A stretch of 64,000 nt of DNA from Dipteronia dyeriana (taxonomy: Eukaryota; Streptophyta; Magnoliopsida; Sapindales; Sapindaceae). Both the position numbers and the translations under genes were made by a program. Within the stretch, counting starts at the first letter, position 1; every line of letters begins with the position of its first letter. This document shows positions 7,079-52,057 of the stretch, piece by piece. Under the pieces are notes generated by a model that was given only the letters and a program-made list of their open reading frames with translations, had not been told where the DNA came from and ran no database searches. Location of the stretch: positions 26,049,598-26,113,597 of the forward strand of contig CM065297.1 of the NCBI GenBank assembly GCA_032871835.1, read 5' to 3'.

Positions 7079-7119
7079 CATTACAGGGAATTAGGATTTT
7101 TTTTATTCATCTTCAATGC

Positions 7120-7127
<8 letters not shown>

Positions 7128-7185
<58 letters not shown>
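7128..7185. repeat. (TA)n microsatellite
   Basis: Near-perfect TA dinucleotide run in the outer part of the left arm. The matching point of the right arm (about 52008-52020) has only a short TA run, so this tract has expanded since the arms diverged. Confidence 0.9.
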
Positions 7186-7190
<5 letters not shown>

Positions 7191-7249
7191 AAAAATAGAA
7201 ACAAAACAAAAAGAGAGGAATAGATTAATTTATATTAATACAATTTATT

Positions 7250-7663
7250 ATGCTAAAGTGGTTTCAATCATCTTTGAAGTTGTTCCTCGGAAATACTTTG
7301 TCATTCACTTCAATGTTAAAGTAGTTTCTAATAAGGTCAAAGTTGATTGGTTTCCAGAAACAACTACAACGTTGACTAGAACGTTAAAGTAGTTTCCATC
7401 AACGTTGAAGTTCTTTCAAACAAGTAACTGTTCAGTGAACAAATTTGACGTTGATTTCAACGTTAAAGTGGTTTCCATAACGTAAAACCAACGTCGAGTA
7501 GTTTCCATAACGTAAAAGTTGTTCCTTTTGTTAAAGTTGAATGGTTCCCAGAAAAAATTGCAACGTTGGTTAGAACGTTAAAGTGATTTCCATCAACGTT
7601 AAAGTTGTTTCAAACGAGTAATTGTTCCCATGAACTATTTTGACATTCATAGCAACGTTAAAG
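7250..7663 (+). repeat. Satellite array, left arm, segment 1
   Basis: Imperfect tandem copies of an about 165 bp unit built from related motifs of the form AACGTTAAAGTGGTTTCC, AACGTTGAAGTTGTTTC and TAACGTAAAAGTTGTTCC. Interrupted at 7663 by the CACTA insertion. Confidence 0.85.
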
Positions 7664-10068
7664 CACTGTAAGAAAATTGAATTTTCTTGACAGTTAGTCC
7701 TTGATAGTTTTTAAAAACTATCGAATAATATTAATTTTTTGACTGTTCTTAAAAATTATGAAGTTCTATTGATAGTTTTTTTCAAAAGCTATCAAGATTA
7801 GTTGACTGTTTTTTAAAACTGTCAATATTTCTCAAATTTTAAATTCCCTCTATTATTTTCAAATATATCAATTCCCATAAAAATTAAAAGAACAATTTGA
7901 TAATTTAAATATTTATACCAGTACCACCATCCTATTTGCTTAAAAATTGATTAAGGTTGGTTCCAGACCTCTTTCTTCATATATTTATCATTTACTGTGA
8001 TCTTTGTTTTTTGACCATCGAATCCGGTTATTTTCAGGTGAGAATCTTACAATATTTTAAGTTTTTTTCTTCTTTATTTATCTATATAGATTACTAATCC
8101 TAACTCTTCTTAAAGTTTGTAAATCTAAACTCCAAAATCAACTACATATGTGTGATTTGCACAAGGTTTTGGCCAATTCTTTTTTTTTTTCAATTAAATG
8201 TTTTTGTTGAAGATTCCATTTAAGGAGATCAAATATATATTTTGATGTTTGTGCTTTTTTTAACTGATATTTGTTGTTCATATTTTTTTTTGGGTTAATT
8301 TGTACGCTTATCTGTTGACTTATAAGGTACTTCTTTTTTTTTCCTTATATGTGTTGTATCTGACTATTGTATGTTACATGTTTGTAAAAATTATTAAGCG
8401 AACTAACAATGTCCGCGTTTTGTTCTTTGTTAAAAACAATTTTCCCTAAATAAACTCAATTCTTAAGTGAACTAATATTGTTTGTACTTTTTTTTTTCTT
8501 TCAGAAAATGATTTTGTAGGGAGATTCCATTTAAGAAGATTAAATATGTATTTTGATATATTTTTTTAACTATATTTGTGTTTGATATATATATATATAT
8601 ATATTGTAGAAAAATTTGTGAGCTTATTTGTTGGCTTACAAGGTGCTTCCTTTTTTTCATTTTCCTTTTCTAGTTGTATTGTATCTTCCTATTGTTTGTT
8701 ACATATTTGTAAAAATTCCTATGTGAACTAACATTGTATTTGTTCTTTGTTAATTATTTTTTCTATGTTAGCTAACATTGTAGTATGTTTGTTTTTTTGT
8801 TAATTTTTGTTAAAAAAATCTAGTACAAAGCATGAAACTTGCATTTACATGAATACTCAATTTGGAGATTAATTTTTTACTCTTTTTTTTTTCAAGAAAA
8901 TACTTTTGTAGGATGATTTCATTTAAGGAGATTATATATATGATATTTGTTTTTTTTTTGTTAACTATAATTGTTGTTGATATTTCTTTTTTATTTCTTT
9001 TGTAGAAAACTTTGTGAACTTATCTGTTGGCTTATAAGGTGCTTCATTTTTTTTTCTTTCCATTTTTCCTTTTCTATTTATTTGTGATGCATCTTACTAT
9101 TGTATTTTACAAGTCTGTAAAATTTTCTAAGTTAACAAACATTGTATGTGTTATTGTTCTTTGTTAATTTTTTTTTCTAAGTAAACTAACATAGTACATA
9201 GTATATATAAAACTTGCATTTACATTAATACTCAACTTGGACTACATTAAAATTCTAACCTATTTTTTTCTTTTTCATCTTCTTGTCTTATCTTGTCTTG
9301 TCAAGAAACTCCTTTCGTGACGTTTCCATTAAAAGAAATTAAGTATACATTTCATTTAGTGTTTGATTTTATTTTATTTTTTGCTGGGAAATGGTTGTGA
9401 GCTTATCTTTCGGCTTAAAAGATGCTACTTTTACTCTTATTTTTTTTTTCTATTTGTGTTATATTTTATTATCGTATGCTAAATGTTTAGGTAATAAATT
9501 TATAAAGGGATTACTATGTTATATAGTAGTTGACTTAAAATAATTTTTCTTAATTTTATACAAGTCGGCTAGAATGTAAAATTTACGAGAGTTGAATGGA
9601 GAGATTGAAACTACTATATTACGAACTTGTCAACTCTTTAGCATGATGATCTTGTGAAATCAATTTAGATTTGTACAATGACCTCAAGAATGATGGTTTA
9701 AGATAGTTTTTTTTACTGTAGTTTGATATTGGATTATTGATTCTCGTAATGAAATTTTATAGTGTTGGATTTTAAATAAGCTTTTGATGATGTGTATATG
9801 ATTTATATTATAAATTTTGTTTATTTGATTTTTTGTAAGGTATTAATTATATATAGAAAATTTTAAAAAGAATCTTGACAAAATTTATTTTGTATTGTTG
9901 ACAGTTTTCAATTGTCAAAACTTAATGATAGTTTTTAACTATGAAGAAGTCTCGACAGTTTAAAACTGTCAAAAGGTGCTTGACAATTTTTTCACTGTCA
10001 ATATCTTTATTGACACAGCCTTCATTGACAGTTTTTAATTGTCAATAAAATTCATTTTTCTTGTAGTG
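7664..10068. mobile_element. Non-autonomous CACTA (En/Spm) DNA transposon
   Basis: Left end CACTGTAAGAAAATTGAATT; right end, reverse complemented, CACTACAAGAAAAATGAATT. These are the CACTA-family terminal inverted repeats. The 3-bp direct repeat AAG flanks it (7661-7663 and 10069-10071), the family's TSD length. Removing 2405 bp plus one AAG restores the satellite unit (GTTAAAG|CAGTTTCC). Subterminal regions are packed with GACAGTTTTTAA/TTGTCAA motifs in both orientations, as expected for transposase-binding repeats. No transposase-like ORF exists inside, so mobility would need a helper elsewhere. Confidence 0.9.
8200..9440 (+). repeat. Internal four-copy repeat of the CACTA element
   Basis: Four diverged copies, about 300-400 bp apart (starting about 8205, 8510, 8900, 9305), each with a 'agattccatttaaggagat' block, then 'gtgagcttatctgttggctt', then 'aaggtgcttc' and a TTTTCCTTTTC tract. 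Copies near 8510, 8900 and 9000 also share 'ttttgtag', a splice-acceptor-like string. No coding sequence was recognised. Confidence 0.7.
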
Positions 10069-12150
10069 AAGCAGTTTCCATAACGTAAAAGTTATTCCCC
10101 TTGTTAAGGTTGAGTGGTTCCTGGGAACAACTTCAACATTGGTTAGAATGTTAAAGTGGTTTCTATCAACGTTGAAGTTATTTCAAACGAGTAATCGTTG
10201 CCGAAAATGATTTTGACGTTGATTGGAACGTTAAAGTAGTTTCTACAACGTAAAAGTTGTTCCCATTGTTAAAGATGAGTGGTTATCGGGAACAACTCCA
10301 ATGTTTGTTATAATGTTAAAGTGGTTTCCATCAACGTTGGAGTTGTTTCAAAAAAGAAATTGTTTCCGTTAACGATTTTGACGTTGATTGGAGTGTAGAA
10401 GTTGTTTCCATAATGTAAAAGTTATTCCTGTTTTTAAAGATGAGTGGTTTCTGGGAACAACTCCAACGTTGGTCAAAACTTTAGAGTGGTTTCTATGAAC
10501 GTTGAAATTGTTTCAAATGAGTAATCGTTCCCGAGAACTATTTTGACGTTGATTGGAATGCTAAAGCTGTTTCCATAATGTAAAAGTTATTCTCGTTGTT
10601 AAAGTTGAGTGGTTCCCAAGAACCACTCCAACGTTGGTTAGAACGTTAAAGTGATTTCCACAAACGTTAGAGTTGTTTCAAATGAATAATCGTTCCCGAG
10701 AATGACTTTGATGTTGATTGGAAAGTTAAAGTTGTTCCCATAACGTAAAAGTTGTTCCCGTTGTTAAAGTTGGGTGGATCACGGGAACAACTCCAACGTT
10801 GGTTAGAACGTTAAAGTGGTTTCCATCAACGTTGAAGTTGTTTCAAACGAGTAATCGTTACCGGGAACGATTTTGACGTTGATTGGAACGTTAAAGCAGT
10901 TTCCACAACGTAAAAGTTGTTCCAATTGTTAAAGATGAGTGGTTCTCGGGAACAACTCCAATGTTTGTTAGAATGTTAAAGTGGTTTCCATCAACGTTGG
11001 AGTTGTTTCAAAAGAGTAATTGTTCCCGTGAACGATTTTGACGTTGATTGGAGTGTTGAAGTGGTTTCCATAATGTAAAAGTTGTTCATGTTGTTAAAGA
11101 TGAGTGGTTCCTGGGAACAACTCCAATGTTGGTTAAAACTTTAGAGTGGTTTCTATGAACGTTGAAATTGTTTCAAACGAGTAATTGTTCCCGAGAACTA
11201 TTTTGACTTTGATTGGAACGTTAAAGCTTTTTCCATAACGTAAAAGTTGTTCTCGTTGTTAAAGTTGAGTCGTTCCCGAGAACAACTTTAACGTTGGTTA
11301 GAACGTTAAAGTGGTTTCCATCAACATTGAAGTTGTTTCAAATGAATAATCGTTCCCGAGAATGACTTTGATGTTGATTGGAAAGTTAAAGTTTTTTGTA
11401 TAACGTAAAAGTTGTTCCTGTTGTTAAAGTTGGGTGGATCACAGGAACGACTCCAACGTTGGTTAGAACATTAAAGTGGTTAGAACGTTAAAGTGGTTTC
11501 CATCAACGTTGAAGTTGTTTAAAACGAGTAATCGTTCCCGGGAACAATTTGACGTTGAGTGGAATAATAAAGTGGTTTCCGTTATGTAAAAGTTTTCCCC
11601 GTTGTTAAAGTTTTTCCCGTTGTTAAAGTTGAGTGGTTCCCGAAAACAACTCCAACGTTGGTTAAAACGTTAAAGTTGTTTCTATCAACGTTAAAGTTGT
11701 TTCCATAACATAAAAGTTGCTCTAATTGTTAATGATGATTGGTTCCCGGAAATAACTCCAACGTTGGTTTGAATTTTAAAGTGGATTCCATCAACGTTGG
11801 TTTGAATTTTAAAGTGGTTTCCATCAACGTTGGTTTGAATTTTAAAGTGGTTTCCATCAACGTTGAAGTTGTTTCAAACAAGTAATCATTCTCAGGAACA
11901 ATTTTGATGTTGATTGGAATGTTAAAGTGGTTTTCATAATGTAAAAGTTGTTCCCTTTGTTAAAGCTTAGAGGTTTCCTCGAATGACTCTAACATTGGTT
12001 AGAACGTTATAGTGGTTTGCATCAATGCTAAATTTGTTTCAATTGAGTAATTGTTCTCCGGAATGATTGTTATAGTGGTTTTCGTAATGTAAAAGTTGTC
12101 CCCTTTGTTAAAGCTTAGAGGTTTCCTCGAATAACTCCAACGTTGGTTAG
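10069..12150 (+). repeat. Satellite array, left arm, segment 2 (with higher-order structure)
   Basis: About 12 copies of the about 165 bp unit; the anchor 'cgtaaaagttgttcc' recurs near 10083, 10241, 10400, 10578, 10743, 10909, 11072, 11240 and 11404. The block 10241-10908 is repeated as 10909-11575 (four units, about 668 bp), so there is a second-level period. Shorter local expansions occur at 11760-11870. Interrupted at 12150 by the copia element. Confidence 0.85.
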
Positions 12151-13744
12151 TGTAAAGTCCTCATTTATTGATTGGCTTATTTCGTGAACAAACCACATAT
12201 TGGGGTTTTATGTAAGGGTAGCTTAGGCTCTCAAGACCTCATGAGAAAAAGCACCAAAGGTAAAATTCTTATGCTTACTTGCTTTGAAGAGATAGTTGCA
12301 CACACTCACAAATTCATGCATAACTCTTATTTATATATGTTATGTGTTTATACTTGTGTGTATTCATGATTGAATAACTCTTCTTGATTTATTTGCATCT
12401 TGTGATTAAAGTACCATGTCCTGTTAGGCATTAGTATATGATGCATCTTCATCACTCTAGTACTTGTTGAAAATGTGTGTTTTAGTGTGGAGAAAGTAGG
12501 TTATGCGCTGGTGGTGCACTACTCGACTAGCGCAGCCTCACCGGCGTAACATTCCAATGGATCGTCGCTTGCCGTGAACCACTGAGTTGTGCCACTTCGT
12601 CCAGGCAATATTGGGAAAGTAGGTTGTGTGCTACTCGACTAGCGCAGCCTTACCAGCGTAACATATCAGTGGATCGTCGCTTGTCATGCGCCACTGAGCT
12701 GCGCCACTCCACCAACGCCTATTGAAAATTTAGGTTGTGCGCTGGTGGTGCACTGCTCGACTAGCGCCACTCTCCAGCGCACATAGCGGGAGCTGGAACA
12801 TTTTTTTCAAAACGATCTCACTTTGGTTAAAACTTATATATATATATATAACTCTTTGTATTCAGATCGTGCAAGAGTTCAGAATATCATATATTTTCTT
12901 TAGAACATATTTCAAAAGGAAAAATCTTGTAAGAACTCATCTTTAAACACTCAAAGCATTTCCTTGTGCATAAAAACATCATCTTGCATCATCTATGGTC
13001 ATTTAGAGTGCCTCAATGGATAGTCTTGCATCATCACATCTTGTTTGGTAAGTTTCTCACTATCTTCTTACAAGTCAAGTGTTTTTCTTGCTAAGCCATC
13101 TCTTTTATCATTTGTATGCTCTTAGAATATATTCTAGATACAAAATAGAGATTGTTGTAATGACATGATTGAGTGTTGTATTGTGATAGCTTCATAGGAT
13201 TGTTTGATCTATGTTTGGCTAAGCTTTATGAACATGTCATTTAGCTCTTGATATCTGGGATTGCATCAATTGTCATCTCTTTATCCTAGATAAGCATATA
13301 AGGTTCCTCAGCCTTGTTTGTTCTTTGAATATCATCATATATTCACATAAGCCATTTTATCTCTTCATTGAGAAGTAAGACTTGTGTTGCTTCCGGGATT
13401 AGGTAGCTTAAATCACAAGCAAGATGGACTAGGTTCACTTATACCGGGATTAGGTGGTGGTGGTGGATTATAATTCGGGATTAGGATATAATTCCTTTGT
13501 CATTAGTGGATTCGAGGTTCGAGTGTGGCGCACTTAACAGCCCGTGGTTTTTCCCATTTGGAGGGTTTCCATGTATATCTTAAGTGTCTTTACTATTTCC
13601 ACACTTATTACAGTTGTGATATTATTGTAACTAGTTTGGGGTATTTTTATCAACTTGACCGTTAACGAAAATTGGGTAAAATTGTTTAAAATCTATTCAT
13701 CCCCCTCTAGATTGTTCTTAAACACACCATAATTAATTGTTTCA
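12151..13744 (+). repeat. 5' LTR of the Sirevirus-like element
   Basis: Starts TGTAAAGTCCTCATTTATTG and ends ATTAATTGTTTCA. A TATA-like run lies at 12833-12851. The U3 part (about 12480-12795) holds three imperfect copies of a GC-rich unit of about 110 bp containing 'tactcgactagcgcagcc'. It differs from the 3' LTR by many substitutions and small indels, so insertion is not recent. Confidence 0.92.
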
Positions 13745-13745
13745 A

Positions 13746-13760
13746 TTGGTATCCTAGCAG
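13746..13760 (+). other. Primer-binding site of the copia element
   Basis: TTGGTATCCTAGCAG directly after the 5' LTR resembles the TTGGTATCAGAGC complement of the initiator Met-tRNA 3' end used by most copia elements, with a few changes. Confidence 0.7.
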
Positions 13761-13869
13761 GTTACTAGACATACATAGGTGATCCTTGCTCATTTTGGTG
13801 TGTGTTGCATTTGTGTGTTTCTGTTGATCAATGATACACTTGCATTCATATCATTCATTCATAAACACA

Positions 13870-15493
13870 ATGAGTTGAAACGATGGCAACAAGGGAGCTT
13901 CTAGCACTAGACCTCAACTTCTCACCGGGTTGAATTATGCCTATTGGAAAGGCAAGATGGAGTCGTATATTTGCAAAATTCATGATAGAGCATGGATGGT
14001 GGTTGAAGACGGCTACACTCCACCCATGATGACTCCTACGGATGGAGGAGATGATGTACTTAAGCCAAAGGCATAGTGGAGCACACAAGAGTTTGAGGCA
14101 TCAAAGTGGAATAGGAAGGCAATGCATGCCATCCTATGTGCAATGGATGAGAATCAATACAAGTTGGTTCAAAACACTATGATAGCTAAGGAGGCATGGG
14201 ATATCTTAGAAGTTGCACATGAGGGAACCGATGTGGTTAAGGAATCGAAGCTTCAAGTTCTCCAAACGCAATTTGAATTACTCAAGATGGATGAGAACGA
14301 GTGCTTCAATGACTTTGAAGTGAGGTTGATGGACATTGTGAACCAAATTCATCGACTTGGTGATTCTTATTCGGATAGGAAGATCAAGCAGAAAATTATG
14401 AGATCTCTACCCGATAGATTTGAGTCCAAAGTAACTGCTTTAGAAGAGAACAATGCTGACAAGGATATGAAGCCGAGTGAAGTGATTGTGAGGCTTGTAG
14501 CTTATGAATCTAGGAAATGTCCTAACCCTATACCACCAAAAAAGCAAAAGGATATTGCTTTGAAAGCCTCTAAAGTTGAGAAGGAGGAAAGTGATGACTC
14601 GGATGAGGAAATGGATTTGCTAATGAGGAAGTTTAAGAAATTCTACAAGTCCGAGAGGAAAGGTTTCGGATCCAAGGGTCAAGACTTGAAGAAAAAAGCT
14701 CCCTTCAAAAAGGTTGAGCCTAGGCAATAAAAGGCCGAAAAGAAAAGAGTCCAATACTATGAATGTGGTGGGATATGTCACTTTGCCCCTGAATGTGCGA
14801 ATCACAAAGTCAAGAAAAAGGGAAAAGTGATGGCCGCCACATGGAGTGAAAGTGATAACTCCAATGAAGGAGATAAGTCTTCGGATGATGGAGAACTCAT
14901 GGCTAACTTCATAGCCTTTATGTCCTCTCATAGGAGCAAAGATGCTAGTGAAGAAGAAAATGAGAGTGAAGAGGAAAACTACTCAAGTGATGATGGTTCT
15001 TCATCACAATCCACAAATGAAAATGTGGATGGGATGGATCTCAAGGACTATATGGCTAGGTTTGAGAGTTCAAGGTTAAAAAACAAGAAAGAAATTAAGA
15101 GATTAAAGGAAAAAAAACATAGAGCTCTCAACTCAAGTGGACCAACTAAATGAAGAGTTAGTGAGAACCATGAATAGTGAAGATAAGCTAAGAAAGGAAT
15201 TAGACTTATCTAAGAGGAGTGAAGAAGGGCTGAAGAAAGAGCTTGAAGATGCTAGAGAGTTGATGGCCAAGATGAACTCTAGCACTAAAAAACTTGACCA
15301 CATGTTAGATGTTGGAAAGAGGCTGAGTGACAAGAAGTGGCTTGGGTTTGAAGATGACAAGATGTTCTCTACTCCAAACAAGACCATTTTTGTAAGAAGC
15401 ATGAATCTCAATGGGTCCTCTTCTCATCAATTTCCTAGAAAGAAACTTGACCTAGGAGAGTGTTCAAGTAGTGCTCAAGTGGTGCTCAAGTGA
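13870..15493 (+). pseudogene. gag: Copia gag (UBN2-type, zinc knuckle, coiled coil), broken
   Basis: The frame starting at ATG 13870 has a stop at its third codon, then reads GASSTRPQLLTGLNYAYWKG, KWNRKAMHAILCAMDEN, EAWDILEVAHEGTDVVKESK, the nucleocapsid-forming copia gag core. Further in-frame stops follow KPKA (about 14074) and PRQ (14728). The zinc knuckle reads YYECGGICHFAPEC: the first Cys of CX2CX4HX4C is Tyr. An acidic Ser/Asp/Glu-rich linker (14830-15030) follows. A frameshift near 15130 leads into a Lys/Glu-rich coiled coil (15137-15493) ending near KKWLGFEDD. A long gag with a coiled coil is typical of Sireviruses. Gag packages the element RNA; this copy cannot encode an intact protein. 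Confidence 0.88.
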
Positions 15494-15757
15494 ACGTGGC
15501 ACCAAGAAGCCTACCTCAAGCTCATCCTACAAGGGCTCTTCAAGTTAACTTCCCTTAACCGAAAGCTAATAAAGGGAAAAAACCTATCATGCAAGCTCAA
15601 CCAAGGAAGCAATCAAGTCTTGTTCAACAACAAAGAAGGAAAGTTCCTCAACAACAATCAAGACAACCACAAAGACATGGGAAGACTCCAATGCATTCAC
15701 AAGGTTATTGATATGAACCTCACCAAGAGCAGTGAGACCTGGAAACAATATATGGTA

Positions 15758-16510
15758 GTAAGGATCATTTTCTAATTTCATATTTATAAAAGAAGAAATA
15801 AAAAAAAGGACCGCGACTCGTTACCTATAAGGAGGTAAGAGCCAACGGTATCAAGAAAGTTGTAGATGCCACACTCAAGAATAAGAAAGAAGGTGAGTGA
15901 TAAGTCAAGGTTTGAACGCCACAAGGTAGAACCTTGATAAGTTCACAAGTTCTATGAAGAACCAAAAAGAAAATTCTCTCAAATTTATTTCAATTCAAAA
16001 ATCTATTCTCAAATTACATCAAATGATCCCTTTTATGCTAAAATATCTAAGATCTAAAAGGGAATAAATATTAGGCAATTAATGCCTTATAATCATGAAA
16101 ATAAATGCAAACAAATTTAGGAAATAAATAAATACTAAACTAGCAACTATTGACTTGCTTTCTAATTGGAAAGCTAAATCTGGAAACAAACCAGCCCCTT
16201 AATTTGGGAAACAAATCAACTATTATTCTTTGAAAATTAAAAGGAAATAAATCAGCCAAAGTTGACTATTCTCCTAGCTTGTGCCACACGCCCAAGTCTT
16301 TATTATTCGTCCCAATCAATTGCCTTGATGACATTAATTGCGCCTTGGTCTTCATGTGAGCTTATCTTGGATTTCAACAATTCAAAATAAGCCCAAGTGT
16401 CTTGATTTAGGCCATTTAGTGCTTCTTTGAATCTCTTAGCTCTTGCCCTTCTTATTGGCCCAACCGAAACATGCAATGGATCATTTGATGACTTCTTGAT
16501 TCTTATCAGT
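15758..16510 (-). mobile_element. Insertion of gypsy-like tail sequence between copia gag and pol
   Basis: A 753-bp block interrupts the copia frame just before its second zinc knuckle. The direct repeat TATGGTA (15751-15757; 16511-16517) may be its target duplication. On the minus strand near 16470-16300 it reads GPIRRARAKRFKEALNGLNQ followed by DTWAYFELL, resembling the C-terminal tail of plant Ty3/gypsy polyproteins, then AT-rich non-coding sequence with TAGATCTTAG and a GAAATAAATTTG stretch like an LTR/3' UTR. No intact LTR pair was seen. It may be a truncated or retroposed gypsy fragment. Assignment is inferred from the tail motif only. Confidence 0.55.
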
Positions 16511-16525
16511 TATGGTACGATTCCT

Positions 16526-17960
16526 AACTTCATTCCTACATGTCACTTTTGTGATATTGATGGTCATATTATACCAAAATGCTTTAGATATATTAAATTA
16601 TATAGAATTGAAAGCATGATAGAGAAGAAAAAGGCTAAAGCAGTGATACATGTCATTAGGAAAAATGAAACACTTTTGCATGATCCTAGGACATTTAGAG
16701 CCCATATACCATTGACCACTAGGAAGGAAAATGTTTCACCTAGGTGGATTAGAAGAGATTAACACTTTTGCCATGTTACACAAATTGCCTTGAAAGCTCA
16801 TTCTTCTAATTTTTGGTATTTGGATAGTGGGTGCTCTAGGCATATGATTAGAGATAAGAGTTTCTTTGAGACCCTTGTGATGGAAGAGGGAGGAAATATC
16901 ACCTTTGTTGATGGATCCAAAAAGAAAGTTAAAGGAAAAGGAACTATTTCCATTCCCGGATTACCCTCATTGTCCAATGCTTTGTATGTTGATGGCCTAA
17001 AGGCAAATTTGATAAGCATTTTACATCTTAGTGATGAAGGACTTTCTATCTTGTTAAGGAAAAATGATTGCTCTATCCTATTGCCAAATGGACAAACCTT
17101 GTTAAAAGGTATGAGATCTAGTGACAATTGTTATTGTCTTGAAGCTAGAGTTGTCTCTTGCAATGTGACCAAGGATGAGCAAATTGAGTTGTTGCACGAA
17201 AGACTTAGCCACATGAACTATCAAGATTTACGAATCTTAGATAAGTTCAATGTTGTGCGAGGCCTTTCCAAGCTTGAGAAAAAGGCAACTGGTGTTTGTG
17301 GACCTTGTCAACAAGGGAAGCAAACCAAAAGCATGCACAAAAATGGCAAGTATCTCTCCACCAAGGAGCCTCTAGAGCTTCTCCATATGGATCTTATGAG
17401 TCCCATGCAAACCGAGAGCTTAGGTGGAAAAAAAATACATTTTTGTGTATGTAGATGATTTCTCTAGGTACACTTGGACTTTTTTTCTTAGAGAAAAATC
17501 TAAAACCTTTGACAAGTTTAAAATGTTTTGTACCAAAATTCAAAATGAAATGAACTCCAAGATTAAAAGCATTAAACGGATTAGGAGTGACCATGGGAAG
17601 GAGTTTGAGAATGCCCTTTTTGAAAACTACTGCAATAGTCTAGGCATTTCTCATGAGTTTCCGGCTCCTATGACACCTTAACAAAATGGAGTTGTTAAGA
17701 GGAAAAATAGGGTCCTTCAAGAGATGGCCCGTGTGATGTTGCTTAGCAACAATATCCCTAGGAACCTATGAGCCGAAACCGTCATTACGGAGTGCTATAT
17801 CGGAAATAGAGTCTTTCTAAGGCCCCACACTAGGCAAACCTCCTATGAGTTATGGAAAGGTAGAAAGCCAAATGTTAGCTATTTTCACACTTTTGGAAGC
17901 AAATGCTACATTTTGAATGACCGTGATCAACTAGGAAAATTTGATGCTAAGAGTGATTAG
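16526..17960 (+). pseudogene. pol: Copia protease and integrase region, broken
   Basis: Begins with a zinc knuckle (CHFCDIDGHIIPKC, about 16542-16585). The aspartic protease reads FWYLDSGCSRHM (from 16811; DSG active site intact) and NALYVDGLKANLISI. The GAG-pre-integrase zinc region has LLHERLSHMNYQDLRIL, VCGPCQQGKQ (17295-17325). The integrase core follows: HMDLMSPM, then after a one-base insertion in an A8 run (about 17430) FVYVDDFSRYTWTFFLREKS, RSDHGKEFEN and SYELWKGRKPNVSYFHTFG. In-frame stops: TAA at about 17679, TGA at about 17769, TAG at about 17958. Integrase catalytic Asp residues are visible, but the frame is dead. Normal function: polyprotein cleavage and insertion of cDNA into the genome. 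Confidence 0.9.
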
Positions 17961-25875: not shown

Positions 25876-25949
25876 ATACCCCTCAAATCCGTGAGATGAG
25901 CTCTTGACGGCTCAACGAAAGGGATTTGAATAGATGAGCTCTTCCCGAC

Positions 25950-28450: not shown

Positions 28451-28759
28451 GGTAGGCTTCCTCCAACAATGTTGTTGTTTATCGTGTAAGGATCATTATC
28501 AGCACTTGGGGTATCAACATTATTTGGAGACTAGCTTCCATCCTTGTCGTATGCTATGTTGCTGCTTCACGAGTTCTTTTTTTTTTTTTAAGAACTCTTG
28601 TTCATGAATTCTCTCGCTTGCATATACTTTGATGTTGATAAAACAGATAATCCACCCCCTAGCATCCTTTTTTTTTAGGCTTGCTAGAGTATCTCAGTGT
28701 TTCGTCTGTTTATGTTGGTTCCTTGAAGTTGAGTACTAGCCCCACTTTCTGGCACCAGT

Positions 28760-35850: not shown

Positions 35851-35859
35851 AAGTTATGG

Positions 35860-39000: not shown

Positions 39001-39309
39001 CACATCTTTGTATTCTTTTAGGATTTCGACCATCTTACTTTGATCGTGCTTCGTCAGTTGGGACCCAAGCCTAACAGTATTTTTGGGATCATTGTTGCTT
39101 ATGGCAACTTCCATGGTTGGTTCCTCAAGGCATTTGTTGCTCTATGGAGCTGCCTCTCTCAGGTATAGATTAAACCCGGTCAGGGGGTAGGCCTTTACCT
39201 CCATTGGGTCTACTTTTAGGCCTTCATCTTTTTTGATAGCATCCATTTGCATTACCACTAACTTTGCCTTTTCCCTATATATGGTGAGATTCACTTTTAT
39301 GGCCCACCT

Positions 39310-39846
39310 CTATGATCTTTTCATGATCCCCACTCCAGCTTCGGACGGAAATTTCACTATGAGCGTGTAGCTTGCAGTTATGACTTTTATTTTGTTTAGG
39401 AAGGGCCGGCCTAATAGAGCGTTATATGGCCAATTCTCAACATTTACGACCACGAAATCCAGCAATACTGTCTTCGTACAAGGAAAGCTTTCAGCTTCTA
39501 CTGGTAGTTTAATGGTTCCCAATGCCCTGACCTTGGTTCCTCCGAAACCCCTCAATGGAACCTTCAGTCTTTGGAGATCACTTATATATAGTCCGAGTTG
39601 ATCAAATGCTTTTATGCTTAAAATGTCTGCTAAGCTACCATTGTCGATCAGTATTCTTCTCACTTGCTTATGCTCGATACGAACTGACACAACAATCGCG
39701 CCGTTTGGTCTGACCTCCAACTCGTGTGCGTCCGCTTCAGTGAAAGTTATTGGTCCCCATCCTTGTTTTGCTTTCTTCTGATCGGGACCTAGATGATTCT
39801 CCTCTATACTTCTTTGGTTGTTCATGGCTTCCCTAACTTCTAACAT
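39310..39846 (-). pseudogene. pro: Element A retropepsin-like protease, active site altered
   Basis: A 178-residue open frame with GPITFTEADAHELEVRPNGA, VRRILIDNGSLADILSIKAF and NALLGRPFLNKIKV. The family active site D-[ST]-G reads DNG, a loss of the conserved Thr/Ser, so catalysis is doubtful. Normally cleaves the Gag-Pol polyprotein. Followed by the RT start at about 38979 after a degenerate linker. Confidence 0.85.
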
Positions 39847-39989
39847 CCTTTCTCGGCTACTACTTCCAGTATTGGGGCCACTAAAAATGGTGTTGATTGT
39901 CCCGCTATCCGAGTTTTTCTTTGGGGTCCTATAACTCTTATCCCGATCCCCTGTATGGATATCCTTTTGTCAATCTTCACCTCTTCTGA

Positions 39990-41640: not shown

Positions 41641-41706
41641 TTTGTATGACTAAATCTCTAGCTAATTATAACATCGAAGGTTCATGCCTCTCCTTCTAGT
41701 GCCAGT

Positions 41707-42424
41707 TGTTTACGGTGATTCTTGGATGGATCACACGTCGAACATAATGTATATGAAATCACACAATAACTAATTACGAATAGTTAAGAAAGCAAAAGAA
41801 ACTCGAGGATTTTATGTGGTAAAACCCCAAGAATGGGGAAACATCCACGGTTGCCGGAAACCAGCGAGGAAAGAACTTCACTATGAATAATGGATTACAC
41901 ACTCAGCCTCTCGTGCTCTCTAGAGTATTAATTTATCTTTAACCCTTTCATGGGTGTTATTAGGGTCTATTTATACATGCATAGAACTCTAATTCGTGCT
42001 TTACAAGTAAATGAAGTTGACGTGTTTGAGTCGTTTTATTCTTATTTCTTGTTTCGCGTTCTTCATGAAATAGGTCTCTTGCCAAATTTGGACTCTGGCA
42101 TTGATAGGGAAATTCGCTTCCTTATCAAAGTGTGCATTGAGACACCTTATTGGAGTATGACTCATTCTGCGTGTATTTGATAGTATCCACGTGTTGATCT
42201 GCCGATCATCTGCCAAAACCCGTATTCTCCCCGACCAATGATTCAATCACGACTGGAGGCTTTGACCCAACCATCTCGATAACCCTGACCGCGTGTTATG
42301 AAACCATCTTTGGTTAGCTTAGGTAGGTTCAAGAAGGTTGACTCTTGGTGTCTTGGCATCTCTAACTCCCGCATCTTTAGGTAGTTATGCTGACTCATCA
42401 TTCTTTAGATTTTACTAATAACAA
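41707..42424 (-). repeat. 5' LTR of element A
   Basis: 718 bp; plus-strand ends TGTTTACGGTG ... TTTACTAATAACA, followed by TSD ATAAT. Minus-strand TATA box (TATAAATAGACCC) near 41963-41975; the GGTAAAACCCC...GGGGAAACATCCACGG motif is at 41819-41850. Confidence 0.92.
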
Positions 42425-42805
42425 TAATTAAATTTAATATTTAAAATTTATTTAAAATCATTTTGGATTGTACAAACTTTTTTTTTGTAATTTTTGAAGA
42501 TGATTTGTTTTTCTAGGTTTCAGAGTTAAGATGCATTCATATTTTCTAAGATATTTTAAAATATTTTTTTATCTTAATTTTGATTTTTTTAGTTTATTTA
42601 AAATAAAAATATAGGGTATTTAGACTTTTTACACGTTTGACCATTGACTAACGGATTCATCTAACAGTAGGGGATGTTTGTACAATATTTTTCAAATGTT
42701 AAGGGAAGTTTGTGTGTACACGACCAAAACTGACATATCTGTACAATGTATCAAATTTCGGGGGATGTTTGTACAATTCCCCTTGAATAGATCATAATTG
42801 GATAT

Positions 42806-43490
42806 TTTTTTTGGACAAAATCCAACAAGAGGGGAAAAGCATCAAGGAAAACTTCTGGCATCCCAATTTGGTTGGCACTCCAAAAGAAAACCAATCTCAC
42901 ACTGAACCCACTCAAGAGGACAATTTTATTGAATAAAAAAGAGAAAAAAAATACAAAGTAGCGGAGGGGACAAGAGTCAGACCACCCAAAAAATCATCTA
43001 AAACGATAAAAAGGCAACGGAGATAAATCTATAAAAACAAAGGAATTACAAAAAGGTTGAGAAGTAAACTACCATGACTACTGAGTAAGGGAAAGACCGT
43101 GAGAGGCTAAACTATTCACAACCTGGTTACCTTCTCGATAGATATGGGAAACAACGATATCCATCGAAGTGAGATAAACCAAACAATACCTCCAAGAAGA
43201 AAGAAACCGCCAAGGAACATTTGGGGAGCGACAAAATAAAAGAGTGTCCATGTAAGAAGAGTCGCACCCAATCCAAAGATTATTCCAACCAAAATCAAAG
43301 GCATACTCAAGGGCCTTGATAACTATGCTTAAAAATCATGCATGATACACAAATGAGAAGCGAAACAACCCTTAACAAACCCTTTTTGATTGCAAAAAAC
43401 ACCATCACAATTGAAAAGACCCAGCGAGCCCAAAGAAGCTCCATCTGTATTAGCCTTGAGCCAACACAGATTTTAGATTTTGGATCGAGT
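42806..43490 (-). mobile_element. 5'-truncated L1-type LINE fragment (RNase H domain and 3' end)
   Basis: On the minus strand it reads WLKANTDGASLGSLGLFNCD, GVFCNQKGFVKGCFASHLC, then after a one-base shift ALEYAFDFGWNNLWIGCDSS, FCRSPNVPWRFLSSW, DIVVSHIYREGNQVVNSLAS, HGLSLTQ-stop. This is the RNase H domain at the C terminus of plant non-LTR (L1-clade) polyproteins; the acidic residues in NTDGA and CDSS are visible. A 3' UTR follows and ends in a short poly(A) (minus strand; 42806-42813), as expected for target-primed insertion with 5' truncation. Confidence 0.8.
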
Positions 43491-43665
43491 GTTTATATGG
43501 AAAAAACACATGTGAAAAATATGATGCATATAAGGATCTATCATAGATATTGTCCACCACATGAACTTTTTTTTTAAAAAGAGAGATATTATCCTAGAAA
43601 AGAAAGGAAGTGAAGATTTTCGAAAACAATAATGATGAAATAGAGATTGGTTGGTGATGAATCTC

Positions 43666-43669
<4 letters not shown>

Positions 43670-43715
<46 letters not shown>
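43670..43715. repeat. (TA)n microsatellite
   Basis: 46-bp TA run in the right arm with no counterpart tract at the matching place in the left arm. Confidence 0.9.
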
Positions 43716-43718
<3 letters not shown>

Positions 43719-43907
43719 AGTGTTTTTGAAAAACGAATAGACAAAAGATAAAAATAAATAATAAAAAAAATAAAAAAATGGAAAAGGAGACTGGTAGATC
43801 TCCATCGTCAAAGGATTTCCACCACTGGATATTTAATTGCTATGATACCTATCTTGAAAATGGTTAGTTTCATGGCAATTAACTTTTGCTACCAACTGGC
43901 AGCCAAA

Positions 43908-44244
43908 GTGCTCGTTTGAAAGAGCTTTTTAATATTCTTTTTATCATTTGGTTGTCACTCAGTAGAACATTTAGATGATTAAAAAAATCTATTTACGTAT
44001 ATATAGAGAAGCTCAAATTTTAGACTTTCACAAGTGGATCTTTTTGAGCTTTTTAAACAAAACTAAAATGTCTACTATAACTTTATCATTTAAAATAGTT
44101 TATTAATATTTTGGTAATCTTACCATTTTAAAAAACTTTTTCTAATTGACATCCAAACGACCAATATTTTCCTATTAAAAGCTCTACTTGTAAAATGTAC
44201 TTTAAAAGATCTACTTGAAGAAGCTTTTCCAAACAGAGCCAAAA
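43908..44244. mobile_element. Possible hAT-like MITE
   Basis: Left end GTGCTCGTTTGAAAGAGCTT and right end, reverse complemented, GGCTCTGTTTGGAAAAGCTT form imperfect inverted repeats around about 300 bp of AT-rich, non-coding sequence. The GTTTGGAAAAGCTT style is common in plant hAT-derived MITEs. No clean 8-bp TSD was found. Confidence 0.4.
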
Positions 44245-44394
44245 TGTATTTGGGCTTTTGGGACAACCGATTGAAACTGGTTTGTCCCCAAAACATCATT
44301 TATATTTTTTTTTGATTTTTTTAAAAATAGAAACTCAGTTATAGTTTATATATCATTAATATATTAAATTAAAATTTATTAATATAGTAATGAA

Positions 44395-46440
44395 AAGTAT
44401 AGAAAAAGAAAAGAGAATTTATTTTTGGGAACAACTTCAACATTGATGGGAACCAATTTAACATTTTAACCAATATTTTTATTGTTTCTAGCAACCACTC
44501 AACCTCAATAAAGGAAACGATTTATATATTTTTGGAACCACTTTAACGTTGAAATCAATGTCAAAATTGTTTTCGAGAACAATTACCCTTTTGAAACAAC
44601 TTCAATGTTTATGGAAACCACTCCAACATTCTAACAAATGTTGTAGTTGTTTTCGGGAACCATTCAACTTTAAAAAAGGGAACAACTTTTATGTTATGGA
44701 AACTATTTAACGTTTAAATCAACGTCAAGTTTGTTCCTGGGAATAATTACTTATTTGAAACAACTTCAATGTTGATGGAAATCACTTTATCTTTCTTTCC
44801 AACGTTAAAGTGGTTTCCGAGAACAACTCAACTAAAACAAAAGGAACAACTTTTACGTTGTTGAAACCACTTTAATATTGAAATTAATGTCAAAATTGTT
44901 TTCGGGAACAATTACCCGTTTGAAACAACTTCAACGTTGATGGAAACCACATCAACGTTCTAACCGACATTGTAGTTGTTTCCAGGAACCACTCAACTAT
45001 AATAAAAGGAACAACTTTTATGTTATGGAAACCATTTTAACGTTGAAATCAACGTAAAAATTGTTTTTGGAAACAATTACTCGTTTGAAACAATTTCAAC
45101 GTTGATGGGAACAGTTTTCACGTTCCAACCAATGTTGCAGTTGTTTTCTGGAACCACTCAACTTTGACAAAGTGAACTACTTTTACATCATGGAAACCAC
45201 TTTAACGTTGAAATCAACGTCAAATTTGTTCCTGGAACAGTTACTCATTTAAAACAACTTCAACGTTGTCTGAAACCACTTTAACGTTCTAACCAACATT
45301 TTTGTTGTTTCTGGGAACAACTCATTTTTTAAAAAGGAAACAACTTTTATTTTATGGAACCCACTTTAACGTTGAAATCAACATTAAAATTATTTCTGGG
45401 AACAGTTATCCATTTGAAACAACTTCAACGTTGATGGAAACCACTTCAACGTTGATGGAAACCACTTCAACGTTCTAACCAACGTTGTAGTTATTTTTGG
45501 GAATCACTCAACTTTAATAAAGGAAACAACTTCTACCTTATGGAAACCACTTTAACATTGAAATCAATGCCAAACTTGTTCCCATGAACAATTACTCATT
45601 TAAAACAGCTTCAACGTTGATGGAAACCATGGTTTTCGGGAACAACCCAACTTTAATAAAGGGAACAACTTTTACGTTATGGAACCCACTTTAACGTTGA
45701 AATCTACTTTAAAATTATTTTTGAGAACAATTACCCATTGGAAACAACTTCACCGTTGATGAAACCCACTTCAACGTTCTAACCAACATTGTAGTTGTTT
45801 CCGGGAACCACTAAACATTAACAAAGGGAACAACTTTTACGTTATAGAAACCACTTTAAAGTTGAAATCAACGTTAAATTTGTTCCAGAAAAAATTAATC
45901 GTTGGAAATAATTTCAACGTTCATAGAAACCATTAACGTTCTAAACAACTTTGAAGTGGTTTTTATGAACAACACAACTATAACAAAGGTATCAACTTTT
46001 ACGTTATTGAAACCACTTTAATGTTGAAATCATTGTCAAAATTAATTTCGGGAACAATTACTGTTTGAAACAACTTTAACATTGACGAAAACCACTTCAA
46101 CGTTCTAAACAACGTTATAATTATTTCTGGGAACCACTCAAATTTAACTAAGGAAACAACTTTTAAATTATGGAAACCTCTTTAATGTTGAATTCAATAT
46201 CGAATTTGTTTCCTGGAACAATTACTTATTTGAAATAACTTAAACGTTGATGTCAATCACTTTAACGTTCTAACGAACGTTGTAGTTGTTTCTGGTTTCC
46301 GAGAACTACTCAACTTTAACGAAGGGAACTACTTTTACATCATAGAAACTACTTTAACATTGAAATAACATCAAATTTGTTCTTCGAGAACAACTTTAAT
46401 GTTGATGGAAACCACTTCAACATAACAAGTTGTAGTAATA
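44395..46440 (-). repeat. Satellite array of the right arm (inverted)
   Basis: About 12 copies of the same about 165 bp unit in the opposite orientation: GGAAACCACTTTAACGTT, GAAATCAACGTCAAAATTG, GAAACAACTTCAACGTTGAT, TTTTACGTTATGGAAACC. Sequence drift between left and right copies is substantial, so the inversion is old. Confidence 0.88.
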
Positions 46441-46789
46441 TAAGTTAATATATGTGGAAATGGTCCAAAATGTCACCTTTTTTTATCCCTTGCGATGATG
46501 TCACTATATTAATAACTTATGTTTCAAAAGCACCTATTATGGTGAACTACCAAAATTGCCCTTAAAAGTTATATTTGTGCTTTCATCTTCGGTTTCAGAG
46601 AGATAAGTTTATTTTTCTCTCCAAAAAAGTAGTGTGTGTTCAAATCTATATGTAACTGATTTTTGTGATCTCCCTAATGTTTTGTCATGCTTTTACGAGT
46701 GATTTAATATGTATGCAACACATGTATGAACATTTAGTCTCCAGAATGTTCACTAGGTTTATTTTCTTACTTTCTGAGAATATAGGTCG

Positions 46790-47215
46790 AGCTTGTAGGT
46801 TTGTTATAAAAGCTCGAGGTTTTGTAAAAGCTCGGGTTTTTTTTTAAAAACTCGGTCCGAGCTTATAAGAGTGGTCCAAGATTTTATAACAGCTGCGAGC
46901 TTTTAAAAGCTCGATTCGAGCTGTTATAAAAGCTCAGAGCTATTATATAAAAGCTCGCAGCTGTTATAAAAGCTCGGACCAAGCTTTTATTTATCAGTTG
47001 TGACCTTTTATAAAAGCTCGCAACTTATATATAAACGCTCAAACCGAGCTTTTATATAACAGCTCCGAGCTTTTATAAATGCTCTAGGCTTATATAAAAA
47101 CGCTCGGATCGATTTTTTATATAGCTCGGATCGAGCTTTTATAAAACTCGGATCAGAGCTTTTATAAAAGTTCAATCCGACCTATAAAAAAACTCGGTCC
47201 TAGCTCTTGTACTAT
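46790..47215. repeat. Palindromic AGCTCG/GAGCTTTTATAAAAGCTC array in the MULE leader
   Basis: More than a dozen short copies, alternating in orientation, of a motif like GAGCTTTTATAAAAGCTCG, with TTATATAA variants, between the left terminal repeat and the transposase start. Each copy is itself a near-perfect inverted repeat. Could be transposase-binding or promoter sites. Confidence 0.75.
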
Positions 47216-48576
47216 GCTTATTCGAGATATTATTGTATTGGATCGAGATTTTATTTTGCTTTTATGAGATTTTAGTGTATTGGCTTGAGCTTGTAATTTG
47301 ATTATCCTAGTATTTTTTTTTCCGAAGGATTTTTTTTAAATCTCGACATTTGTTATTATTTTTAAGCTTTTTTATAACATTCATTTGGATTTTAATTGTT
47401 ATTTGAAATTGAATTTAGGAATTTTTATTGTTAATAATGGTTTGTGATTTTGATTTTGACAGGAGAATGAATCGGGTGAGAATAGTCATCTCTTACAACG
47501 GTCGATGAGAGCAGTTACCAGATGGAAGTCAGAGGTTTTTAGGTGCTGATAATCAAGTAATATATGTCTCAAAGAGTATGACTTACCAAGAGTTGGTGTC
47601 GATCGTGGAAACCGTTGTGAAGTATGATGTTGACAAATACAGTGCTGATCTACTGTGTATATCAATGGTTCCTGGGACTACATGTGGCACGTTTATAAGA
47701 AGCGACGATGATGTTCAGTTTATGTTGGGGGAAGATAGGGTGATCCCTCAAGTATGTGTCAGTCTAATTGAGAGGGAAACAGTAGGTGTCATTGGTGAAG
47801 AAATCCCTCCTCGTGATAATACCCAACAATTTCGATCTTCAGACGGATGCAACCAGTTGTTCACAGAAAGAAGTTGGAATAATGGTAGGGAAAACCTGTG
47901 TGGTGTTCCACAGGAAGTAGCCGACCACGGTGAATTAGTCGGTGGCCAATTCGACGATGTGTTTGGATGTCAAATTGAGATGAATGATGGGTAGTTCAAC
48001 CACTAAATATTGGGCCGACACAACAGATGGATGATGAGGAAACTTTGTATCCGGTTGATAATGTAGCTAACAATGAGGAAGAGGAAGAGGCTATTGAACT
48101 GGAAAGACGTGCAACACGTGTACAAATATTTACATGCAGTGCAGTAGATGTAGCTGAGACTTCCGATGTCCGGCCTAATTTAACTACATTTGATTCTAGT
48201 AATGTTAGAATATGGGTTATTCCAGAAGCACAATCATACTCGTTTGGTATTGGTGGAAGCAAGAACGCGGTTCAAGAAGAACATATAAGCATGATATATA
48301 AGGGGTAATTTTTTCCTACCAAAAAGGATTTGAAGAGACTCGTTGGGCATTTTACAATGCGGCAGAACTTCGAGTGGAAGGTGAAAAGGTCAAATAAGAC
48401 AACGTTACATTTGGTTTGTTTGAAGGACAACTGTACATGGAAATTAGGAGCGGTTAGGAGAGATGAAGGGACATACTTCCAAGTAAGAAGTTTTGTGAAC
48501 GAACACACATGTCCTATGGAGGAGATTCACAGCTGTCACCGATAAGCTAGTGCAGTCAAAATTGGAGAAGTGGTTG

Positions 48577-51171
48577 TGAAAATACAATCACAGTTAAATG
48601 CTCAAGGCTAACCTAGAGAGGGGAGGGGGGGGGGGGGGGGGGGGTTGAATAGGTTAGACACCTTTTTCGACTCCCTTAGAAACAAACAAAAGTTTGTCCC
48701 TCTAGATTGCTTGTATCACAATATATATACATTAATTAAAGATAATTAATCAATATATAAACACAAGTAAAGTGTTATACAAATTAGTAATTGTAACACA
48801 TACACAATCTATATTCTAGAAAGGAAGTCAACATATATAAAGAGTTCTATCAACAATACAAATATTAGAGAGATAGGGATAGAGAAAAGTTGACACAAGA
48901 TATAACGTGGTAAACCTCCGAAGAGGAAACATCCACGGGCTAGCAGCCACCGGCAAACAAAATCCACTAATAGATAAGACAAGTACAATCTCTCAAGTGA
49001 CCTTTTCACCTAGAAACTACCCTCCAATCCTACTCTAGAAGTTGCCGGCCCATGCTCAACAATCTGAGGCTTCACACCTCTTGTCAAGACTTACTTGCTC
49101 ACCTTATCCGGATCCTCACGACCCAAAGCAAGACTTCTTGCTCAACTAAGTCCTCACGACTCTAGTCAAGACTTCCTTGCTCACCTATCCGAGTTCTCCC
49201 AACTCTAGGCAAGACTTCTTGCTCAACTATCCAAGGCTTCACACCTCTAGCTAAGACTTCCTTGCTCGACAATCCAAGGCTTCACACTCTTGTGAAGACT
49301 TCTTGCTCAACACCATAGGTCTCACACCTATTGTCAAGACTTCCTTCTCACAAGGCATCTAGGTGATCATGAATGCAAAATGCAAACAAGCACGCAACAT
49401 AGAATGCTATGATCAACACATCCTATGGAAAATAATAGACATGAGCATAAATGCACAAATCACATATAGTCTAGTTTATCATGCATGAGTAGTCAATCTA
49501 GATTATGTAAGATATGATCAACATTAATCACAAACTAGATTCATGCATATATCTAAACTTGAATCACAAGATATGATCAACAAATCACAAGATCAAGTTT
49601 AAATCATAAAAACCTAAAACATGCTAAAATCATATGATAATGTCAAATAGACCTAAGCATAAGTTCTAGAGCATATTCCTAATCATAGATTCAACAAATC
49701 ACATGAATATCTCAAATGAACATAAGCACATGTATTATGTGAGAATTTCGGCCAAGAGAGCCTAATACATGTGAGGAACTATTTTTCTCAAAATCAATCA
49801 ATCAAAGATCATAAAATAGTCCTAGAATCAAAGCTAGCACAATACAATCCCAAACATGTGAAACATAGGCAAAATCAAAACCTAACTCAACATGAATGAT
49901 TTTAATTGAAACTCAATCTAGCTTTGAAAGTGTTCAAAACACAAATCAAAACACTTTAAATATACAAAAATACGTAGAAGAAGAAAACCCAAGGCAATTG
50001 ACCAAGTTTTAAAAGAAAACTTTGAGAGAAAATCAATACCTTAGTTGATTTAGGTTCAGTCCCTATTTTTGTATGATTAGACACAAAAAACAGCAGCAAA
50101 ATTAATTCAAACCTTCATAGAAAAGATAGAGGATGAATATATGAACACTCATAACTTCTAATCACTCAAATCGGAGTTCAAATGAAGAAGTTATGATATT
50201 TGGAAGGTGAAAAAATTTAGAGAGAAAATTTCTGCACACTTGTTTTAAATTTCTTCTTAGAATGAAATGTGAGAGGGAAAAATATTATAAAGAAGAGGGA
50301 TAAGAATGAAAGATGAAAAGACCAAAAATCCATTAAGTACCCAAGCATGCTTGCTTCCTGAGATGGCACGTGGGCATCTCGGGGAAGCAAGCATTCTATC
50401 CCAAGATGGCCACGCGCCATCTCGGGAAAGAGTGCTTGGATGCACTTCTTTTCCTCTCGCGCTCTCTTCGCGTTCTTCGACTGTTCTCCGGCCTATGAAC
50501 TCAGAATTTGAATCCGTTTGTGGATTACGAACCATAACTCTCACAAAGACATGGACATAAGATAATCAATCCAGAATATAATAATTCGACTCGATATACG
50601 AAGACGAAGACAATGTATGGAACATGAGTTGAAAGTGTAATATCTTTTGACTTAGAACTTGAAATCAATAGTATGAGTAACCGAAATGACCGGAACTCAA
50701 TCAAGAATGATTTAAGACTAAATCCAAGTTCAATATCCATGTTATACAAAACATATACACACACAAACACAATTCACACTAGAATGCAAACTTCATATAG
50801 ATAGTCTCCAATCATGCATATTCCAAAACATGTTATTTCCATACCAATGCATGAACATTCATCTTTAAGTGTGTGAATGTGTTATACATGGTGCACAACG
50901 ATGCAGGGACACATATAAATGAATTGTATATGCAGGAACACAAATGTATGATCTCTGTGTGTGTGCCTAAGCCTTGTAAGAGAAAGATATGTTCTTAGTA
51001 TACCTTTGTAGAACCATATTGCATCCTTTCTCTTGAAGACTTAGAACTTGCTTTGACTTGTTGTTTCTTCTTCCTTGAAGCTTGAATCATCATGAATCTA
51101 AACAAATAAATCATTACAAGTAAACATCATTTTGATATGGAATTAATTCCAACACAAACTAAAACCTAACA
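48577..51171 (-). mobile_element. Element D: Sirevirus-type solo LTR, 2.6 kb, inside the transposase gene
   Basis: Plus-strand ends TGAAAATACAATC ... AAACCTAACA with TSD GGTTG (48572-48576; 51172-51176); removal rejoins the transposase frame (KIGEVV | AHRLQQQDGR). It contains no gag or pol. It is colinear with the LTR of element E (61503-63974). It carries an about 48-bp tandem repeat (49045-49345; 'ctcacgactctagtcaagacttccttgctcaac') and a 20-G homopolymer (48625-48644). A GATGGCACGTGGGCATCTCG/GATGGCCACGCGCCATCTCG pair sits at 50362-50440 in the likely U3. Confidence 0.9.
48625..48644 (+). repeat. Poly-G homopolymer (20 bases)
   Basis: A run of 20 G after GAGGGGA near the end of LTR D. Element E has GAGAGGGAGGGGGGAGG at the matching place (about 61540-61556), so a G-rich patch is ancestral and has expanded in D. 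Length may be affected by sequencing error. Confidence 0.85.
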
Positions 51172-52057
51172 GGTTGCACATAGACTTCAACAACAAGATG
51201 GTCGACTAATGCGTCCGAAGGACATAATCGCCGACATGAAAACAATGTATGGCATTCAAATCTTGTACAGTAAGGCACATCAAGCCCTGTAATATGCGTT
51301 GTCACTGACCTATGGAACGCATGAGGAAATCTTCAAACTACTGCTTTCATTTGGCTACGTGTTAGAGCAACAAAGTCCAGGGACAATAACTGACCTACAG
51401 TACGATGAAGATGGTAGATTTCTCTATTTTTTCATGTCGTTGGGTGCCTCACTCATAGGATTTTGGAGGTGTATGCGTCCAGTTATTGCTATAGATGGTA
51501 CCCATTTAAAGGGAAGATTCAGGGGCACAATATTTGTTACAACTGCACAAGATGAGAACGAACAGGTGTATCCAATTGCTTTTTGGTACGGTGAGTTAGA
51601 AAACAACCTTTCATGGGAGTGGTTTTTGGATTGCTTGAAGGCTGTCCAAGACCATATTGATGATCTGGTTTTCATTTCCGATTGGCATGCAAGCATTGAA
51701 GCTAGGATTTCTAAAGTTTTTCCCGATGCAACCCATATGATATGTTGCTGACACTTTTCTGAAAATGTGAAGAAGCGATTTAACAGAAAGGATGTAGCAG
51801 TCATAATGGATAAAGCAGCTAGATCTTATACAGAGTTGAAATATAATCATCACAACGAAAGTGATGGCATGTGTATTTTGGTCTTCACACTTAAATGGTG
51901 CCTTTTAAACTTGATTTATTAATGTGGTGCTATTTACACTACAGCCCCCCAAAAAGATGCCATTAATTTTGTGAACCCTTAATATATTCCTAGTTTTTAT
52001 TTTTCTATAATATATATATGCATAGAATATGAATATAAAAACCTATTTCCCTCTAAT

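What the first reader, a model, noticed from the sequence alone, without database searches (positions are those of the whole stretch)
7079..52057. A 45 kb foldback element: satellite-bearing inverted arms that meet almost at a point
Homology between 7079-24461 and the inverse of 42425-52057 runs in order from outer AT-rich ends, through a tandem satellite, to within about 100 bp of the centre. Once dated insertions are removed, what remains is a hairpin of roughly 4.5 and 3.5 kb arms with almost no spacer. Foldback elements with repeat-filled arms are known, but one this large with an about 165 bp unit made of smaller AACGTT motifs is, to my knowledge, unusual and may define a new family.
Basis: partly seen in the sequence, partly recalled or inferred. 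Interest (0 to 1): 0.8.

Follow-up and report, generated by a model that had tools for sequence, protein, structure and literature searches.

The report
Old satellite-armed foldback transposon, nested insertions
In a plant chromosome, a decayed hairpin-shaped, transposon-like structure with arms full of a short repeated sequence has been stretched to 45 kb by later insertions; it resembles a known kind of element, and its arms only seem to touch because a separate small transposon landed between them.

Summary
The inverted structure is real but smaller than claimed. With four later transposons set aside (exact target-site duplications), the arms are homologous at their outer ends (7062-7330 against the right arm from 52073 inward), through a ~165-bp tandem array, across the array's inner edge, and up to 23750/44248. 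The arrays start and stop at nearly the same unit phase in both arms, and the innermost units pair across arms while most others pair within an arm. So the arms are copies of one structure whose arrays then changed separately. "Arms that meet almost at a point" is not supported: 23760-24163 and 42784-44240 share no inverted homology, and the innermost homology (24161-24457 against 42782-42448) is best read as a separate Mutator-like TIR element with a 9-bp duplication matching 8 of 9. The original object was at most ~8 kb, with arms of 3.8 and 2.3 kb. Its layout (outer domain, tandem repeats, inner domain, middle) is that of foldback elements such as Tetris and Tm1. No outer target-site duplication was found, and no second copy could be sought (genome search did not complete), so mobility is inferred, not shown.

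The parts
7062..7249 (+). left arm, outer domain, with an (AT)n run at 7120-7189
   Evidence: homologous to 52073-51988 plus the bases inside 46453; AT run
7250..7663 (+). left satellite, outer piece (~165-bp units)
   Evidence: nhmmer unit hits, first at unit position 75
7664..10068 (.). later insertion: CACTA-type element, non-coding as far as seen, TSD AAG
   Evidence: CACTGTAAGAAAA..TTTTCTTGTAGTG ends and AAG repeats printed; CACTA label from recall of end motifs
10069..12150 (+). left satellite, main piece; 4-unit (~660-bp) higher-order repeat at 10239-11481
   Evidence: two HOR copies 92.6% identical over 583 aligned bases
12151..22652 (+). later insertion: copia-type LTR retrotransposon, TSD GTTAG, LTRs 12151-13743 and 21075-22652
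   Evidence: RVT_2 2.4e-52; a joined satellite unit spans the site
22653..23327 (+). left satellite, inner piece
   Evidence: unit hits ending at unit position 110
23328..23750 (+). left arm, inner domain: AT-rich stretch then CCGGTT..CCCAAAT core
   Evidence: homologous to 44417-44248, 0 of 300 shuffles at the edge and at the core
23751..24160 (.). spacer (middle domain), left part; 52-codon open frame 23749-23904
   Evidence: no inverted homology; frame, no Pfam match above cut-off
24152..24160 (+). 9-bp duplication TTGAATAAA of the central TIR element
   Evidence: sequence printed; chance
24161..42782 (.). central Mutator-like TIR element (~300-bp TIRs 24161-24457 and 42448-42782), itself split by an LTR composite
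   Evidence: 82% identity, score 318 against shuffle maximum 87; sharp G-run ends; TSD 8 of 9
24462..42423 (.). later insertion inside the central TIR element: LTR retrotransposon composite, TSD ATAAT; a second LTR element (24999-25875 / 30920-31807 repeats) nested in its left LTR
   Evidence: no Pfam match in the three frames tried
42783..42791 (+). 9-bp duplication TTGAATAGA of the central TIR element
   Evidence: chance
42792..44247 (.). spacer, right part, with a LINE-type RNase H remnant (RVT_3, 43078-43335, minus strand) and a possible MITE (~43903-44245)
   Evidence: RVT_3 2e-6; MITE ends marginal, 3 of 300 shuffles as good
44248..44417 (-). right arm, inner domain
44418..46426 (-). right satellite, ~12 unit lengths, period 165/329
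46427..46453 (-). right arm, outer domain, inner part (46445-46453 is the MULE duplication)
46454..51978 (+). later insertion: MULE with transposase remnants, 9-bp TSD TTAATATAT
   Evidence: MULE domain 1.3e-16, MuDR DNA-binding domain 1.5e-6
51988..52073 (-). right arm, outermost domain

Best explanation
An old, non-autonomous foldback-type DNA transposon (composite, tandem-repeat-filled terminal inverted repeats) that inserted here, decayed, and was then split by a central Mutator-like TIR element, LTR retrotransposons, a CACTA element and a MULE. SHOWN: the two arms are inverted copies with the same order (outer domain, ~165-bp array, inner domain), then a non-homologous middle; array length differs between arms. 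INFERRED: it moved by cut-and-paste with a transposase supplied in trans; the array of palindromic motifs (AACGTT, GTTCCCGGGAAC) worked as a row of transposase-binding sites, as THAP sites do in Galileo; array length changed by unequal exchange, giving the 660-bp repeats on the left. The transposase superfamily is unknown; Mutator is the default guess because most foldbacks are Mutator-like.
For: Arm homology at outer end, array edge and inner core. Arrays begin at unit position 75 (left) and 69 (right) and end at 110 and 121. Innermost units L25 and R14 are each other's best match, support 0.90; 20 of 22 left and 9 of 14 right unit pieces have their best match in their own arm (3 of 39 hits under ~70 bp were dropped). 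The unit is a diverged dimer of ~82-bp halves, score 78 against a shuffle maximum of 28. Same domain order as Tetris (outer flanking domain, ~220-bp repeats, inner domain, non-coding middle; passages) and Tm1.
Against: No target-site duplication: best boundary match 6 of 9, where random AT-rich pairs in the neighbourhood mostly reach 7 of 9. No second copy seen; the genome could not be searched. No transposase in the middle. Outer-edge units do not pair cleanly across arms (L01's best match is R06).
Confidence: 0.55

Rival explanations
1. In-place inverted segmental duplication: a host segment holding outer sequence, satellite and inner sequence was copied once in inverted orientation (for example by break repair or template switching) and never moved as a unit.
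For: No target-site duplication at the outer ends; non-homologous middle and soft outer limit fit equally well; one copy only in view.
Against: Both ends of homology coincide with the outside of a tandem array, the layout expected of foldback TIRs; no host gene is carried in the arms by the frames listed.
Confidence: 0.3
2. Two separate copies of one satellite-bearing element (or of a satellite with its flanks) that landed near each other in opposite orientation.
For: Each arm has its own outer and inner domain; the middle is not homologous.
Against: Would need two independent insertions in inverted order with nothing between but the middle; I did not test duplications flanking each arm singly.
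Confidence: 0.1
3. One reading: one continuous hairpin in which the innermost 300 bp are the tips of the arms and the unmatched stretches are insertions or deletions.
For: The innermost homology diverged as much as the arms (K 0.18 against 0.14-0.21), which a shared origin would explain.
Against: The innermost homology stops sharply at G-run ends with a 9-bp repeat matching 8 of 9 at just that point, and no homology continues outside it.
Confidence: 0.05

Closest known systems
Tetris (Drosophila virilis foldback; PMC4079207, abstract and passages)
   Same: Composite TIRs: outer flanking domain, variable number of ~220-bp tandem repeats, inner domain, non-coding middle; nested satellite-like amplification of the repeat
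   Different: Insect; several copies with 8-10 bp duplications, whereas here one copy without one; unit ~165 bp, arms 3.8 and 2.3 kb against up to 1.7 kb
Tm1 Mutator/foldback (Meloidogyne; PMC3169594, passages)
   Same: TIRs with outer motif, tandem repeats of differing number at the two ends, inner motif
   Different: ~14-bp repeats, 9-bp duplications, Phantom-type transposase known
FARE (Arabidopsis foldback; paper not held; known here only from mentions)
   Same: Plant foldback with long palindromic ends, MULE-type transposase reported
Galileo (Drosophila; PMC3688188, passages)
   Same: Long TIRs with internal direct repeats that hold secondary transposase-binding sites; the model for the mechanism proposed here
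   Different: P-superfamily transposase; binding was measured there, not here
MuTAnT (Medicago MULE; PMC4486113, passages)
   Same: For the central TIR element only: G-run ends, foldback of ~150-bp TIRs, 9-bp duplication
   Different: Sequence not compared; MuTAnT targets TA microsatellites

Membership tests
foldback (composite-TIR) DNA transposon | long inverted terminal arms | tested here: met
foldback (composite-TIR) DNA transposon | tandem repeats inside both arms, variable in number | tested here: met
   about 19 and 12 unit lengths
foldback (composite-TIR) DNA transposon | outer and inner domains bracketing the repeats in both arms | tested here: met
foldback (composite-TIR) DNA transposon | target-site duplication of 8-10 bp | tested here: inconclusive
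   none found; best 6 of 9 is no better than chance, but ~15% decay and a soft boundary weaken the test
foldback (composite-TIR) DNA transposon | several dispersed copies | not tested
   The genome search did not complete; the collections scanned are viral and prokaryotic
Mutator superfamily (for the whole structure) | MULE transposase in the element or 9-bp duplication | tested here: inconclusive
   no duplication; the MULE transposase at 46454-51978 belongs to a later insertion
Mutator-like TIR element (central, 24161-42782) | TIRs with sharp ends and 9-bp duplication | tested here: met
   8 of 9, local chance 0.00084, boundary chosen after seeing it
Mutator-like TIR element (central, 24161-42782) | related MULE transposase | not testable with these tools
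   no coding middle left; no plant DNA collection

The most novel reading that the evidence does not exclude
A new plant foldback family, of Sapindaceae or near, whose TIRs carry a hierarchically built array (82-bp half unit, 165-bp unit, 330- and 660-bp higher-order repeats) of palindromic transposase-binding motifs, and which seeds satellite DNA in its host: a plant counterpart of Tetris.
Probability: 0.3. Interest if true: 0.55.

Novelty: new member of a known kind. Interest (0 to 1): 0.35.

Why it matters
If further copies exist, it would be a plant case of a transposon making satellite DNA inside its own ends, with the stages still readable in one locus: shared array edges, arm-specific interiors, and a young four-unit amplification on the left. 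It also warns that an inverted repeat which seems continuous in a nested plant region can be two unrelated hairpins, one inside the other.

Tried and rejected
Global alignment of the arms with all inserts removed drifts across the satellite because array lengths differ; replaced by local tests. Inner-arm test over the full right spacer was weak (5 of 200). A fixed ~21-bp sub-period of the unit: no lag above 0.42 identity in the consensus; a gapped half-unit comparison did find ~82-bp halves. Coding satellite: open frames of 45-76 aa only, and the protein search with six of them found no candidate. Rfam: no match in the window. Middle as captured gene: one sub-threshold Pfam match, E 0.056. LINE duplication: only weak candidates. 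Homology in the outer flanks: one 18-bp blastn match, E 0.004, not adjoining the ends. Literature: nine searches answered; none of the listed titles or abstracts describes this repeat or a Sapindaceae foldback, which says nothing about papers not held.

Full report
What was claimed. I tested the arms piece by piece, then the centre, then the ends.

Later insertions. Four blocks carry exact duplications: 7664-10068 (AAG, CACTA-type ends), 12151-22652 (GTTAG, copia: RVT_2 2.4e-52), 24462-42423 (ATAAT, an LTR composite; its three frames tried in Pfam gave nothing) and 46454-51978 (TTAATATAT, a MULE: 1.3e-16). Flanks are printed. LTR and repeat divergences (K2P) are 0.064 for the copia LTRs, 0.110 and 0.102 for the two nested LTR pairs, against 0.14-0.21 for four short arm segments, so the arms are older than these insertions if arms began identical.

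Arms. Outer end: 160 of 188 identical with the MULE set aside, 0 of 80 shifted controls as good. Array edge and core: 0 of 300 shuffles each. The wider inner test was weak, 5 of 200. Units were found with an HMM built from eight left-arm units: 25 hits left, 14 right. The first partial unit starts at position 75 left and 69 right, the last ends at 110 and 121. On 36 of the 39 pieces (22 left, 14 right; three short ones dropped), mean identity is 0.804 within left (217 pairs), 0.789 within right (87) and 0.772 between (292); 20 of 22 left and 9 of 14 right pieces match best within their arm; the innermost pieces L25 and R14 match each other best, support 0.90. Outer-edge pieces are not resolved. 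Left units 6-9 and 10-13 form a 660-bp higher-order repeat, 92.6% identical over 583 bases. C-to-T and G-to-A changes are commoner at CpG (132 of 552) than at other C or G sites (170 of 1381), as expected of methylated DNA.

Centre. Inverted homology ceases at 23750/44248. From 23760-24163 against 42784-44240 the score is at chance (106 of 200; 67 of 300 in a second form). It returns at 24161/42782 with 82% identity (score 318, shuffle maximum 87), begins with GGGGG and ends with CCCC, and is bracketed by TTGAATAAA (24152-24160) and TTGAATAGA (42783-42791). A random pair of local 9-mers matches 8 of 9 with frequency 0.00084 (0.00026 window-wide); I chose the boundary after seeing it, so the real chance is a few times higher. 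I read this as a separate Mutator-like TIR element that landed in the spacer. Against: its TIRs are as diverged (K 0.18) as the arms, which a later insertion does not predict by itself. The right spacer also holds a LINE RNase H remnant (RVT_3 2e-6) and a possible MITE whose ends are marginal (3 of 300).

Ends. No target-site duplication: the best match in a 31 by 33 grid of boundaries is 6 of 9, while random neighbouring placements mostly give 7 of 9. With ~15% decay and AT-rich flanks this is inconclusive rather than negative.

Host. The MULE transposase piece hit 120 proteins at E up to 0.001 among 135 candidates, nearly all named Dipteronia or Acer. I infer Sapindaceae or a close relative; the tools never named the organism.

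Mechanism. The order outer domain, repeat array, inner domain, middle is that of Tetris and close to Tm1. In Galileo, repeats within the TIRs hold extra transposase-binding sites. The unit here is rich in short palindromes (AACGTT four times and GTTCCCGGGAAC once in the consensus). I propose, without a test, that they were such sites. All of this is consistent with a foldback element and none of it proves that it moved.

Verdict. Real, partly misread, probably a new plant member of a known kind; original length at most about 7.9 kb (3,782 + 2,301 bp of arm, plus 410 + 1,456 bp of spacer, my sum).

Noticed in passing
46797-47168: Inside the MULE, a degenerate ~65-bp tandem repeat built of GAGCTTTTATA motifs on both strands.
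   Followed up: no
49053-49350 and 62026-62203: Two ~42-bp minisatellites with similar CTAGTCAAGACTTC motifs, near a 73% identical pair 49756-50236 / 62605-63079; perhaps one unlabelled repeat family.
   Followed up: no
53073-53337 and 53564-53818: Direct repeat of ~260 bp, 79.6% identical, in the AT-rich right flank.
   Followed up: no
24462-42423: LTR element nested within the LTR of another: repeats 24999-25875/30920-31807 inside the split LTR 24462-24875 + 31808-32137 against 41706-42426.
   Followed up: partly
7120-7189 and 43670-43715: (AT)n runs in the left outer domain and in the right spacer; the right outer domain has only a short one.
   Followed up: no
426-674 and 3250-3525: Remnants or exons of host-like genes: a frame that looks like a GDSL lipase start (by eye, no Pfam match) and a protein-kinase piece (Pkinase 3.2e-6, below cut-off).
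   Followed up: partly
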